Assembly (NCBI RefSeq): GCF_000448565.1
Contig: NZ_CM002128.1
Span: 428,159 to 463,057, forward strand
Length of the DNA: 34,899 nt
Source of the DNA: Streptococcus sp. HSISM1
GTDB taxonomy: Bacteria > Bacillota > Bacilli > Lactobacillales > Streptococcaceae
Direction of reading: 5' to 3'
Shown: piece after piece, positions 8,984 to 17,100 of the stretch
Position numbering within the stretch: the stretch's first letter is position 1
Layout: each line of letters starts with the position of its first letter
The notes under the pieces: generated by a model
What the model saw: only the letters and a program-made list of their open reading frames with translations
What the model was told of the DNA's origin: nothing
Database searches by the model: none
Translations under genes and position numbers: made by a program

Positions 8984-9041
8984 TTTGCAATATTTCCTTT
9001 CTGCCATGGTCTCTTTCCGAGCCATAGATTGTTACTAAGCT

Positions 9042-13866: not shown

Positions 13867-14214
13867 ATGAATCCATTAATCCAAAGCTTGACTGAAGGTC
13901 AACTTCGTACTGATATCCCTGCATTCCGTCCTGGTGACACTGTTCGTGTACACGCGAAAGTTGTCGAAGGATCTCGTGAACGTATCCAGATCTTTGAAGG
14001 CGTTGTTATCGCTCGTAAAGGTCAAGGACACACTGAAATGTACACTGTTCGTAAAATCTCTAACGGTGTCGGTGTTGAACGTACATTCCCAGTACACACT
14101 CCACGTGTAGACAAGATTGAAGTTGTACGTTACGGTAAAGTACGTCGTGCGAAATTGTACTACCTTCGTGCATTGCAAGGTAAAGCAGCTCGTATTAAAG
14201 AAATCCGTCGTTAA
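13867..14214 (+). CDS. rplS: Ribosomal protein L19
   Basis: 115 aa, usual length. Large-subunit protein at the subunit interface. The sequence from [18 protein letters not shown] to the basic C terminus is diagnostic, including the typical [19 protein letters not shown] and [15 protein letters not shown] segments. TAGGAG is the ribosome site. Single-gene unit with its own promoter, structured leader and terminator. Confidence 0.98.
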
Positions 14215-14257: not shown

Positions 14258-14329
14258 GTCCCCTTAGTTCAATGGATATAACAACTCCCTCCTAAGGAGT
14301 AGTTGCTGGTTCGATTCCGGCAGGGGACA
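14258..14329 (+). tRNA. tRNA-Arg, anticodon CCT
   Basis: 72 nt. Acceptor stem GTCCCCT (14258-14264) with AGGGGAC (14322-14328) and discriminator A at 14329; CCA is not encoded. The anticodon stem ACTCC/GGAGT encloses the loop CTCCTAA, giving anticodon CCT, which reads AGG. The T arm is GCTGG TTCGATT CCGGC. I looked for a duplicated tRNA 3' end downstream, as left by integrating elements, and did not find one. Confidence 0.95.
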
Positions 14330-15056: not shown

Positions 15057-15336
15057 TATGAATGTACATTTGAAAAATTTTTAGTTTTCCTTTAAATAAA
15101 GTATTGACAATGATTAGCTCAAAAAAATTTTTTGGTTACTAGAAATCATAGAAGTTCGTGAATAATTCTTGAGCCTAAGACACTTTTTTCACAGCTGAAA
15201 GTCTCTAAAGAAAATAAATGGGAAATGTAAAGTCAAGAAAAGATGGAATATCTCCATGTAATGAATTGATTTTTTAGGAGGGAAGGAGTAAAATGTAGTT
15301 AATATGATGACTAATTATGGATAGAAAAAAAGTCAC
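15057..15336. other. Non-coding stretch with the right half of the split repeat
   Basis: No gene seen. Bases 15151-15204 match the right half of the cloverleaf repeat at 19583-19722: GAAGTTC, TAATT, TTGAGCCTAA and TCACAGCTGAAAGT (12 of 14 in the last block). The left half lies at 14384-14415. Confidence 0.5.
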
Positions 15337-15437
15337 AAAAAAAGCCCCGAATCGGTGCGCATTAGTGATTATGGATAACCATATTTTAACTCAAAAGAAA
15401 AATCTTTTGGCTGTGTTGTTTCGAATGGTTCCAAAAC
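15337..15437 (-). ncRNA. tracrRNA-like sequence of a decayed type II-A CRISPR system
   Basis: Reading leftwards on the minus strand: anti-repeat (15437-15410), an 18-nt hairpin CAAAAG/CTTTTG, GTTAAAATA (15390-15382), a nexus-like ATGG-TTAT-CCAT, then the terminal hairpin GCACCGATTCGGGGC (15358-15344) and seven U. The parts and their order match the S. thermophilus CRISPR3-type tracrRNA. Differences: the extra 18-nt hairpin next to the anti-repeat, and an A-G mismatch where the terminal hairpin normally has A-U. No cas9 is present in the window. It is probably a relic. Confidence 0.7.
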
Positions 15438-15955
15438 AATACTATTTCAAGCACTGCATCAAGTATCGTTATAGAGCCGTGTTGTTTCGAATGGTCCTAA
15501 GACTTATTTTTTGTATGATTATATCAGAATTTTTTTAAAAATGAAAGGGCTTTCTATGGAAAATGATGTGTTTTTTGATTATTTTTTAAGATCACTTAGG
15601 TTTCATTTTCGTGATAGGTGTAAGGATATTGGATTTATAGAGTTTTTCAAAGATGAAAATAATTGTTTTATTACTATAGAGGATTATGTTTTGGAATCTT
15701 TTGTAATATTGTCAAATATTTTGAGTCAGGAGAGGATTGTGTTTTCTTGTGGAATTATTTATAGTAAGGGGGTAGTTACTGGAGTAGAAGTATATATGAG
15801 TGTATTAGAGTTAGAAAGATTAAATAAATTGTTTAAAATATAGTTTTGAAAAATATTAAAAAACATAAGAGAATCTGTCTATGTAGGATGTGTGGAGTTA
15901 ATAGTATCAACGTTTCCTAGTTTTAGAGCTGTGTTATTTCGAATGATCCCAAAGC
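15410..15955 (+). CRISPR. Degenerate type II-A CRISPR remnant, three repeat copies
   Basis: Copy A (15410-15437) matches positions 9-36 of the canonical 36-nt streptococcal II-A repeat (GTTTTAGAGCTGTGTTG...) at all 28 positions. Exactly 30 nt (15438-15467) follow, the normal spacer length. Copy B (15468-15503) is a full 36 nt with five mismatches, three of them near the 3' end. Copy C (15920-15955) is 36 nt with four mismatches and lies 416 nt further on, after an unrelated small ORF. A terminator follows at 15980. Copy A is also the anti-repeat of the tracrRNA-like sequence on the other strand. No cas genes are present. Confidence 0.8.
15556..15843 (+). CDS. Small hypothetical protein lodged inside the CRISPR remnant
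   Basis: 95 aa beginning MENDVFFDYFLRSLRFHFRD. AAAGGG (15544-15549) is six bases before the ATG, a good ribosome site; the frame is open upstream to 15511 without one. The protein is rich in Phe, Ile, Leu and Glu, with no signal peptide or clear membrane helix, and mixed strands and helices ending in LELERLNKLFKI. Strongly AT-rich. It is not part of Cas9, Cas1, Cas2 or Csn2 as far as I can tell. It lies between degenerate repeats B and C. Function unknown. Confidence 0.5.
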   Translation: MENDVFFDYFLRSLRFHFRDRCKDIGFIEFFKDENNCFITIEDYVLESFVILSNILSQERIVFSCGIIYSKGVVTGVEVYMSVLELERLNKLFKI

Positions 15956-15979
15956 AAGAAAAACAAGAAATGATGGTCT

Positions 15980-16011
15980 AGGAGCTCGATACATTGAGCT
16001 TCTTTTTCTTT
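15980..16011 (+). terminator. Terminator after the last CRISPR repeat copy
   Basis: AGGAGCTC (15980-15987) pairs with GAGCTTCT (15995-16002), one G-U, followed by TTTTCTTT. Placement suggests it once ended the array transcript. Confidence 0.6.
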
Positions 16012-16131
16012 AGAAATTCAAATAATAATTTTACAGACTTTTATGTCATTAATTTATTTTTCCCCTCCGCTTTTTCTTTGACTCTCCTTTCTTATTTTTC
16101 TAAAATAGTAGGTGTGTGAAGGGAGATTGAT

Positions 16132-17100
16132 ATGAAAAAAGGTTTTGTGATTGTGCTTTCTGCTTTGGTCTTGGCTTCGTGTGGTCGTCCTCAGAGGACG
16201 GTGATACCTAAGAGTTCGGAGACCAAGCAGACAAGCACTTCAGACAAGAAACAGTCGGGTATGGACCTAAAAGTCATTAAGGCTAAGGACTACTCGAGTA
16301 TCAAGGGAACTTGGATCGATGGTCGTGGCAATGAGCTGGTCTTTGATGATAAGGGCTTGGTCAGCGAGGATGTTGAGCTTGATGCATCGAGCTTTAAGCA
16401 GAAGGACCAGATCGCTGAGATGACGGTCAGTGCCAAGTCAGGTGTTGGAGGCTACGGTCTCTTGCTCCTTCCAAAAGGTCAGAAAGCGGGCAAAGACGAT
16501 GCTTCGGATAAGTCTAAGGATCGGATCTGGGCTGGTCAGTCGCCGGCTTATGGTGATGATGATAATTTCTACTATCGCAAGAAAGAGCAACCCAAAGATC
16601 GGGAGCAAGTAGAGCGAGACGATAGCAGTAGTACGACAAAGACAAGCAAGGCCAAGAAATGGGCTAGCAGTCAAGGATCCGATACCAAGTCGTCAAAAAA
16701 ATCAGATAAGGATAGCTTCCCAGGCTATTCGTCTGACCAGATCGAAGCAGCGCGTGTCTGGGCTTATGTGATTCAGTCTGTTCCTAAGGAATTGAATATC
16801 AACGAAAGTGCTGCAGGTAGCTATATATACACAGATGGGATGGGAGTGACCTATCCAAAGACAGTCCACCATCTATATGGCTCTTATTCAGCCGAGGGAA
16901 ATGTGACCTATTCGTCCAACGGTGATGGAACGGTGACCATTTATCCTGTACCGAGTCACTGGCAACAGTCTCCTGATGAGTTGAACAGCCAAGAATTCAT
17001 GACGCAGTTCACCCAAGGAATCTTGGACCATGCGGAGACGGTAACATTGCCTGATGGGGATCCTGATACGATTCGGCAGATCTTAGCCGTCCTTCAGTAG
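16132..17100 (+). CDS. Lipoprotein, DUF6287-like N-terminal segment
   Basis: 322 aa. The lipobox LASC gives Cys17. After a Ser/Thr/Lys tether, KVIKAKDYSSIKGTWIDGRGNELVF (near residues 48-72) resembles the DUF6287 segment found in streptococcal lipoproteins (assignment from memory). A long low-complexity Ser/Lys/Asp region (about 125-205) links it to a C-terminal domain (SDQIEAARVWAYVIQSVP onward) containing HHLYGSYSAEGNVTYSSNG. Extracellular; function unknown. AGGGAGATTG lies before the ATG. Confidence 0.85.
   Translation: MKKGFVIVLSALVLASCGRPQRTVIPKSSETKQTSTSDKKQSGMDLKVIKAKDYSSIKGTWIDGRGNELVFDDKGLVSEDVELDASSFKQKDQIAEMTVSAKSGVGGYGLLLLPKGQKAGKDDASDKSKDRIWAGQSPAYGDDDNFYYRKKEQPKDREQVERDDSSSTTKTSKAKKWASSQGSDTKSSKKSDKDSFPGYSSDQIEAARVWAYVIQSVPKELNINESAAGSYIYTDGMGVTYPKTVHHLYGSYSAEGNVTYSSNGDGTVTIYPVPSHWQQSPDELNSQEFMTQFTQGILDHAETVTLPDGDPDTIRQILAVLQ

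What the first reader, a model, noticed from the sequence alone, without database searches (positions are those of the whole stretch)
15337..15503. cas-less II-A CRISPR scar formed by recombination between tracrRNA anti-repeat and an array repeat
On the minus strand a tracrRNA-like RNA ends in the usual hairpin and U run; on the plus strand its anti-repeat (15410-15437) equals positions 9-36 of the canonical II-A repeat at all 28 positions, is followed by exactly 30 nt, then by a full 36-nt repeat. In intact II-A loci the order is tracrRNA (opposite strand), cas9-cas1-cas2-csn2, leader, array, so the anti-repeat and the array repeats are direct repeats on one strand. Recombination between them would excise every cas gene plus the leader and leave exactly this junction. 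A natural anti-repeat normally keeps mismatches to the repeat; the perfect match through the AAAAC end supports a hybrid. I know of no general description of this deletion route, though CRISPR loss by other recombination is known.
Basis: partly seen in the sequence, partly recalled or inferred. Interest (0 to 1): 0.78.

Follow-up and report, generated by a model that had tools for sequence, protein, structure and literature searches.

The report
CRISPR locus lost through its own repeats
A Streptococcus appears to have lost its whole CRISPR immune locus by recombination between the locus's tracrRNA gene and one of its array repeats, and the same kind of scar, sometimes keeping a last spacer, turns up repeatedly in related species.

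Summary
A tracrRNA remnant (minus strand, 15337-15437) is fused in register to 28/28 bases of a type II-A repeat, then exactly 30 nt, then a degenerate repeat. The 30 nt match a Streptococcus phage tape-measure gene at 28/30, followed by TGG. No Cas9 was found in the genome.

Relative G225 has an intact locus at the same site. There the sequence that follows the window's second repeat is the array trailer, not the tracrRNA promoter side, so about 8 kb between anti-repeat and penultimate repeat is missing. Native anti-repeats end in CCAAC in 23 of 24 intact loci read and in CCAAAAC in 0 of 24; the window has the array form.

The scar recurs: a junction pattern hits 8 of 284 Streptococcus genomes and 2 of 301 genomes of other genera in the order. 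Nine further Streptococcus tracrRNA hits, plus G185, are joined straight to array trailers. Breakpoints, spacers and sites differ.

Ten literature searches, with part of the listings seen, showed no description of this route. It is a new variant of a known kind. The molecular pathway and any selection for it are inferred.

The parts
13867..14214 (+). rplS (ribosomal protein L19), left anchor of the site
   Evidence: ORF; the near-identical G225 ORF is TIGR01024 rplS
14258..14329 (+). tRNA-Arg(CCT), left anchor of the site
   Evidence: ARAGORN and Rfam
15337..15437 (-). tracrRNA remnant: terminator hairpin, nexus region, extra small hairpin, anti-repeat; its native 5' side is replaced by array sequence
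   Evidence: aligned with tracrRNAs that have adjacent Cas9
15344..15358 (-). tracrRNA terminator hairpin, 5 of 6 pairs
15410..15437 (+). hybrid anti-repeat/repeat: tracrRNA on its left, array repeat end on its right
15410..15426 (.). inferred crossover interval: 17 nt shared by hairpin-type anti-repeats and array repeats; array alleles lie to its right
15438..15467 (+). surviving 30-nt spacer; matches tape-measure gene of Streptococcus phage Javan372 at 28/30, followed by TGG
15468..15503 (+). last regular array repeat, degenerate (31 of 36)
15504..15555 (+). array trailer and upstream region of the small ORF; matching sequence follows the last regular repeat in the intact locus G225
15556..15843 (+). 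95-aa ORF between last regular repeat and a distal repeat copy; no Pfam or NCBIfam hit up to E = 1
15920..15955 (+). third, distal repeat copy (32 of 36), also present in G225 and G030
16132..17100 (+). lipoprotein gene (DUF6287), right anchor of the site

Best explanation
This is the scar of a type II-A CRISPR-Cas locus that was deleted through its own repeats. The tracrRNA anti-repeat and the array repeats lie in the same orientation on one strand on either side of cas9-cas1-cas2-csn2 and the leader. They therefore act as short direct repeats (17 to 25 identical nt in the loci compared). Recombination between the anti-repeat and the penultimate array repeat removed the tracrRNA 5' side, all cas genes, the leader and all but one spacer. 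It left tracrRNA 3' part, hybrid repeat, one spacer, last repeat and trailer. SHOWN: the junction, its register, the phage-matching spacer, an intact locus at the same site in a relative, no Cas9 found in the genome, and the same junction type in other genomes with differing breakpoints, spacers and sites. INFERRED: that the event was homologous pairing (RecA-type exchange, or strand slippage or annealing), the fate of the excised part, and that loss was favoured by selection. The remnant is most likely non-functional (inference).
For: Intact locus at the same site in G225: rplS, tRNA-Arg, tracrRNA, cas9, cas1, cas2, csn2, leader region, 30 repeats, trailer, ORF, distal repeat, lipoprotein. 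Both flanks align with the window. Equal exchange in G225 coordinates would remove about 8.0 kb. Diagnostic bases: anti-repeat end CCAAC in 23 of 24 loci with adjacent Cas9 that I read, CCAAAAC in 0 of 24; window CCAAAAC. Hairpin-type loci with Cas9 have ATAG where the array repeats of G048 and G067, and the window, have ATGG. Spacer 28/30 to phage Javan372, then TGG. No Cas9 in the genome by three queries. Recurrence: junction pattern, up to 2 mismatches, in 8 of 284 Streptococcus genomes, reversed control pattern in 0, and in 2 of 301 genomes of other genera, both with a tracrRNA-like stretch to the left and no ORF over 332 aa in the 3-kb locus. Zero-spacer form joined to array trailers in nine further tracrRNA hits and in G185. 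Closest pair: G067 (with Cas9) and scar G109 share tracrRNA, left flank and trailer. Breakpoint side differs: G138 and G178 keep CCAACAC; G282 and G046 have ATAG with CCAAAAC while their own array repeats read ATGG; the window has array alleles at both places. On an mnmE tree of 30 chosen genomes, scar versus intact needs at least 7 changes; counting well-supported branches alone, the intact group needs at least 5.
Against: The direct progenitor (hairpin-type tracrRNA with cas genes at this exact site) was not found; the intact locus at the site has a canonical tracrRNA. G138 and G178 keep native alleles to the end of the anti-repeat, so a simple crossover inside the repeat does not explain them without heteroduplex repair or later conversion. 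Homology of 17 to 25 bp is short for efficient RecA exchange (recalled). Of 48 tracrRNA hits without adjacent Cas9, 17 are scars of this kind, 18 were inspected and not shown to be, and 13 were not inspected, so other loss routes exist too. Four of the 8 spacer-bearing scars gave no convincing phage match, and one of the 4 that did has TAG, not NGG, next to it. Cas9 elsewhere in G434 and G531 was not tested. No transcription or excision data.
Confidence: 0.93

Rival explanations
1. A repeat-spacer unit was inserted into the tracrRNA anti-repeat (misdirected spacer acquisition, or integration of an excised repeat-spacer circle), and the cas genes were lost separately.
For: My first reading of G030: its single anti-repeat is followed by the same TTATTTTTTGTATG sequence that follows the window's second repeat.
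Against: In the intact locus G225 that sequence follows the last regular array repeat, while the native anti-repeat is followed by other sequence and cas9. G038 and G101 also have it directly after a full repeat. So it is the array trailer, and the inserted-unit model needs extra steps.
Confidence: 0.02
2. The cas genes were removed by an insertion sequence or by random end joining, and the in-register junction is coincidence.
For: Relatives such as G038, G101, G226, G190 and G262 show, by eye, inverted-repeat, IS-like remnants left of the terminal repeat and have no listed tracrRNA-core hit, so another loss route probably exists at related loci.
Against: I see no such remnant at the window junction (by eye). 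Register is exact in 8 of 284 Streptococcus and 2 of 301 other genomes, with 0 hits for the reversed control pattern and 0 in 100 shuffles of the window.
Confidence: 0.02
3. One old deletion is shared by descent, and the different spacers and breakpoints arose later.
For: G032, G049, G189 and G215 share one junction; the window and G138 share left flank and tracrRNA type.
Against: Scars carry different tracrRNA types, have different flanks (lipoprotein; mnmE; a gene that looks like ndk, by recall), hold different spacers, and interleave with intact loci on the mnmE tree. Horizontal transfer of loci and weak branches (11 of 26 inner branches well supported) blur this count.
Confidence: 0.05
4. 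The remnant is kept because it still makes a useful RNA (for example for an incoming Cas9, or as a small regulator).
For: Terminator stem scores 6 of 6 in 6 of 8 spacer-bearing scars. Weak promoter-like sites on the minus strand at 15606-15578 and 15650-15623 (9 of 12 each) lie upstream of the remnant and point toward it; I raised this rival from 0.05 to 0.07 for that reason on checking.
Against: No Cas9 found in the genome. The native tracrRNA 5' side is deleted. The stem scores under 6 in the window and G138, and in 6 of 9 zero-spacer scars scored. The promoter scan finds 10 sites where shuffles give 4.6, so single sites mean little.
Confidence: 0.07

Closest known systems
Type II-A CRISPR-Cas locus (Streptococcus)
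   Same: tracrRNA opposite in strand to the array, 36-nt repeat, 30-nt spacer, phage target followed by NGG; same site and flanks as the intact locus G225
   Different: No cas gene at the locus, no leader, one spacer; tracrRNA fused to the array
Orphan (cas-less) CRISPR arrays
   Same: Repeat-spacer-repeat without a Cas9 in the genome
   Different: This one carries a tracrRNA joined in register, which records how the cas genes were lost
Spacer loss by recombination between array repeats
   Same: Same kind of event: exchange between short direct repeats. [quoted passage not shown] PMC6990116 reports spacer loss from plasmids likely by recombination between repeats (passages seen)
   Different: One partner is the tracrRNA anti-repeat, so the cas operon and leader go too
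Deletion of CRISPR-Cas loci through IS elements or other homologous regions (S. epidermidis, PMC3784566)
   Same: Loss of the whole locus
   Different: There 16 deletions of 65,712 to 306,488 nt used IS431, IS256, Tn554, gene homologies or SCCmec excision (passage seen); here the locus's own repeats serve

Membership tests
Functional type II-A CRISPR-Cas system | cas9 in the genome | tested here: not met
   none with PF13395, the G225 Cas9 or TIGR01865
Functional type II-A CRISPR-Cas system | tracrRNA with anti-repeat complementary to the repeat | tested here: met
   remnant at 15337-15437, aligned with tracrRNAs that have adjacent Cas9; transcription not tested
Functional type II-A CRISPR-Cas system | leader before the first repeat | tested here: not met
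   the tracrRNA runs straight into the hybrid repeat
Scar of anti-repeat x array-repeat deletion (proposed here) | anti-repeat in register with a repeat end, then a spacer and repeat, or the array trailer | tested here: met
Scar of anti-repeat x array-repeat deletion (proposed here) | intact locus with the same flanks in a relative | tested here: met
   G225; its tracrRNA type differs from the window's
Scar of anti-repeat x array-repeat deletion (proposed here) | excision observed directly | not testable with these tools
   needs a bench assay
Orphan CRISPR array | at least two repeats around a spacer, no cas genes | tested here: inconclusive
   repeat-spacer-repeat at 15402-15503; Cas9 not found genome-wide; cas1, cas2 and csn2 were not searched genome-wide

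The most novel reading that the evidence does not exclude
The direct-repeat relation between anti-repeat and array is not just a weak point but a built-in excision route: type II-A loci regularly pop out as circles bearing cas genes, leader and array with a hybrid repeat. The scar or any related array could serve as a landing site for return by homologous recombination, so that loss and regain of CRISPR is a cycle.
Probability: 0.1. Interest if true: 0.85.

Novelty: new variant of a known kind. Interest (0 to 1): 0.64.

Why it matters
How CRISPR systems are lost is often unknown because little is left to read. Here the loss leaves a scar that tells the route, the breakpoint and sometimes a last spacer. 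A type II-A locus with its tracrRNA on the far side of the cas genes from the array, in the orientation seen here, carries the needed direct repeats by its very function, since the anti-repeat must resemble the repeat (inference). The scar lets losses be counted across genomes, makes the excision rate measurable, and offers a test of what drives CRISPR loss. It also explains part of the cas-less tracrRNAs in Streptococcus: 17 of the 48 hits without adjacent Cas9.

Tried and rejected
I first read G030 as showing that a repeat-spacer unit had been inserted into the anti-repeat. The intact locus G225 showed that the shared sequence is the array trailer, so I dropped it.

Self-targeting as the cause: the spacer has no second match in its own genome at up to 3 mismatches. 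Not supported for this spacer; the lost spacers cannot be tested.

Phage matches for the other scars' spacers: found for G138 (29/30, then AGG), G166 (30/30, then AGG) and G178 (28/30, then TAG, not NGG); none convincing for G046, G282, G072 and G231. With the window, 4 of 8 scars have a streptococcal phage match, 3 of those 4 followed by NGG. Plasmid collections were not searched.

The named-genome scan found the junction in only 2 contigs, S. porci and S. hillyeri. That scan allows no mismatch, and other scar genomes may not be in it or may be left out.

A consensus promoter scan of 15250-16130 gave 10 sites against 4.6 in shuffles. Two of them lie upstream of the remnant and point toward it, so transcription is not excluded. 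The 95-aa ORF has no Pfam or NCBIfam hit up to E = 1 and only weak PHROG hits (best E 0.062).

Literature: ten searches. Two returned nothing. Listings were seen in full for 46 (15), 92 (15), 98 (11) and 106 (4), and in part for (15 of 78; 12 of 42; 8 of 78, to 2014; 10 of 12). I saw passages found by term in six papers: PMC6546361, PMC8841824, PMC8616872, PMC6990116, PMC3784566 (12 of 19 places) and PMC3089615 (12 of 21 places). I read no paper whole. None of the listings or passages describes recombination between tracrRNA and array. PMC3089615 reports that 5 of 13 S. pyogenes strains lack CRISPR/cas loci; the passages seen give no mechanism. The library lacks most subscription papers and all preprints.

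Full report
WHAT IS THERE. In the window a tracrRNA-like gene lies on the minus strand (15337-15437) between tRNA-Arg (14258-14329) and a lipoprotein gene (16132-17100). On the plus strand its anti-repeat 15410-15437 equals positions 9-36 of a type II-A repeat at 28 of 28 bases. It is followed by 30 nt (15438-15467), a repeat copy with 31 of 36 matches (15468-15503), a 95-aa ORF (15556-15843), and a third copy with 32 of 36 matches (15920-15955). The junction pattern occurs once in the window and in 0 of 100 shuffles. No Cas9 is found in the 2.33-Mb genome (one contig, completeness 95.65) with PF13395, with a streptococcal Cas9, or with TIGR01865.

THE 30 NT ARE A SPACER. They match the tape-measure gene of Streptococcus phage Javan372 (host S. 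parasanguinis) at 28 of 30, E 1e-4, and the phage bases that follow are TGG. The next best phage hits in that search have E 0.6 or more. The genome itself has no other match at up to 3 mismatches.

AN INTACT LOCUS AT THE SAME SITE. Relative G225 has rplS, a sequence matching the tRNA-Arg stretch, tracrRNA, cas9 (TIGR01865), cas1 (TIGR03639), cas2 (TIGR01573), csn2 (TIGR01866), a leader region, 30 repeats at 66-nt steps, the trailer TTATTTTTTGTATG, the small ORF, a distal repeat copy and the lipoprotein. The window aligns with it left of the anti-repeat and from the last repeat rightwards. In G225 the native anti-repeat is followed by other sequence and cas9, while the trailer follows the array. 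So in the window what lies between the anti-repeat and the penultimate repeat is gone; by G225 coordinates (anti-repeat from 1013, penultimate repeat 8990-9025) that is about 8.0 kb.

THE REPEAT IS A HYBRID. I read the anti-repeat of 24 loci with Cas9 within 2.5 kb (24 of the 69 found; 'intact' here means no more than this, and Cas9 is interrupted or partial in a few, such as G048 and G056). Of these, 23 end in CCAAC (G236 differs) and none in CCAAAAC. The window ends in CCAAAAC like the array. Its tracrRNA has an extra hairpin found also in G048, G133 and G067, whose anti-repeats read ATAG where the array repeats of G048 and G067 read ATGG. The window reads ATGG. The exchange therefore most likely lies in the 17 nt shared by both partners (15410-15426).

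THE SCAR RECURS. A tracrRNA-core search gave 117 hits in 116 of 284 Streptococcus genomes. In 69 of 117 a Cas9 lies within 2.5 kb, always on the expected strand; in 48 it does not. Of these 48, 35 were inspected. Eight have the anti-repeat in register, 30 nt, then a repeat: the window, G138, G178, G166, G282, G046 (two spacers), G072 and G231. Nine are joined directly to an array trailer without a spacer: G030, G186, G032, G049, G189, G215, G034, G079 and G109 (comparators with array and trailer). G109 is an 83% complete genome. Eighteen others were not shown to be scars. Thirteen hits were not inspected; of these, six have Cas9 on another contig (G158, G018, G117, G194, G088, G144) and two far off on the same contig (G198, G130). 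G185 is a tenth zero-spacer case found by another search. A direct pattern search with up to 2 mismatches, independent of tracrRNA detection, found the same eight of 284 genomes, with no hit of the reversed control. In an order-wide sample of 365 (64 of the window's genus) it found the window, G138 and two genomes among 301 of other genera, G434 and G531, each with 2 mismatches. Both have a tracrRNA-like stretch on the left and no ORF over 332 aa in the 3-kb locus; Cas9 elsewhere in them was not tested. The pattern demands 30 nt. In alignments A2 and A3, where spacing was free, the direct repeats that I saw to the right of an anti-repeat also stood at 30 nt, by eye; in G253 and G275 the copy is inverted. 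In the zero-spacer ORF-type scars the distal repeat lies several hundred nt away.

INDEPENDENCE. Breakpoint alleles differ: G138 and G178 keep CCAACAC; G282 and G046 have ATAG with CCAAAAC, while their own array repeats read ATGG; the window has ATGG with CCAAAAC. The spacers of the eight differ. Flanks differ: lipoprotein, mnmE, a gene that looks like ndk (recalled), and others. The pair G067 (with Cas9) and G109 (scar) share tracrRNA, left flank and trailer, and differ as predicted. On a DNA tree of mnmE for 30 chosen genomes (18 scars, 11 intact, 1 other; G067 by a partial gene), scar versus intact needs at least 7 changes; on well-supported branches alone, which are 11 of 26, the intact group needs at least 5. 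The genomes were chosen, not sampled, and loci may move between species, so this is a guide only. By tracrRNA type, site and junction I count 15 kinds among the 18 Streptococcus scars (the labels are mine).

HOW IT WORKS. The anti-repeat must resemble the repeat to do its job, and in these loci it lies in the same orientation as the array. Shared stretches are 17 nt (G048 type) to 25 nt (G217 type) against the repeat used. Pairing between them, by RecA-type exchange or by slippage and annealing, would delete what lies between (inference). G138 and G178, which keep native bases to the end of the anti-repeat, fit best with heteroduplex repair toward the tracrRNA strand (inference). The tracrRNA 5' side is lost. 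The terminator stem, scored by a crude script, has 6 of 6 pairs in 22 of 24 intact loci, 6 of 8 spacer-bearing scars and 3 of 9 zero-spacer scars scored (G109 not scored, and for G186 the script picked another hairpin). That leans toward a decaying vestige but is weak for the window, whose score of 5 is shared by two loci with Cas9. Two weak promoter-like sites point toward the remnant, so transcription is open.

WHAT IS KNOWN. Spacer loss by recombination between repeats and whole-locus loss through IS elements or gene homologies are known (passages in PMC3784566 and PMC6990116). CRISPR loss in S. pyogenes is known (passages in PMC6546361, PMC8841824 and PMC3089615). Ten searches of an open-access library, with part of the listings seen, showed no account of loss through the tracrRNA anti-repeat. 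I file this as a new variant of a known kind.

Noticed in passing
window 15504-15955; L106 9092-9545; L065: A 95-aa ORF of unknown family lies between the last regular repeat and a distal repeat copy, as if it occupied the last spacer position; in G032 the distal repeat is followed by a trailer like that of loci without the ORF. Matches occur in 31 of 284 Streptococcus genomes, the window's included; in 8 of the 25 rows aligned no repeat stands just upstream (by eye).
   Followed up: partly
L052 and L064, upstream of the ORF (G182, G132): A repeat of another type (GTTTTTGTACTCTCAAGATTTAAGTAACTGTACAAC, CRISPR1-like by recall) stands about one spacer upstream of the II-A terminal repeat, which looks like two array types fused.
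   Followed up: no
L034 1600-1700, L035 1640-1740: In G038, G101 and relatives an inverted-repeat, IS-like remnant abuts the terminal repeat, and no tracrRNA is seen there: perhaps a second loss route at related sites.
   Followed up: no
window 15391-15409; L108, L109, L110: A tracrRNA variant with a small hairpin inserted beside the anti-repeat; genomes whose tracrRNA matches the window's, such as G133, G212, G067, G216 and G219, have Cas9 open frames of 1,447-1,457 aa, longer than most others.
   Followed up: partly
L140, L159 (G253, G275): tracrRNA-like sequences followed by an inverted rather than direct anti-repeat copy (by eye); G275 has Cas9 2.6 kb away on the opposite strand.
   Followed up: no
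L209 1350-1510 (minus strand): In G434 the scar keeps further repeats, with one spacer present twice (by eye).
   Followed up: no
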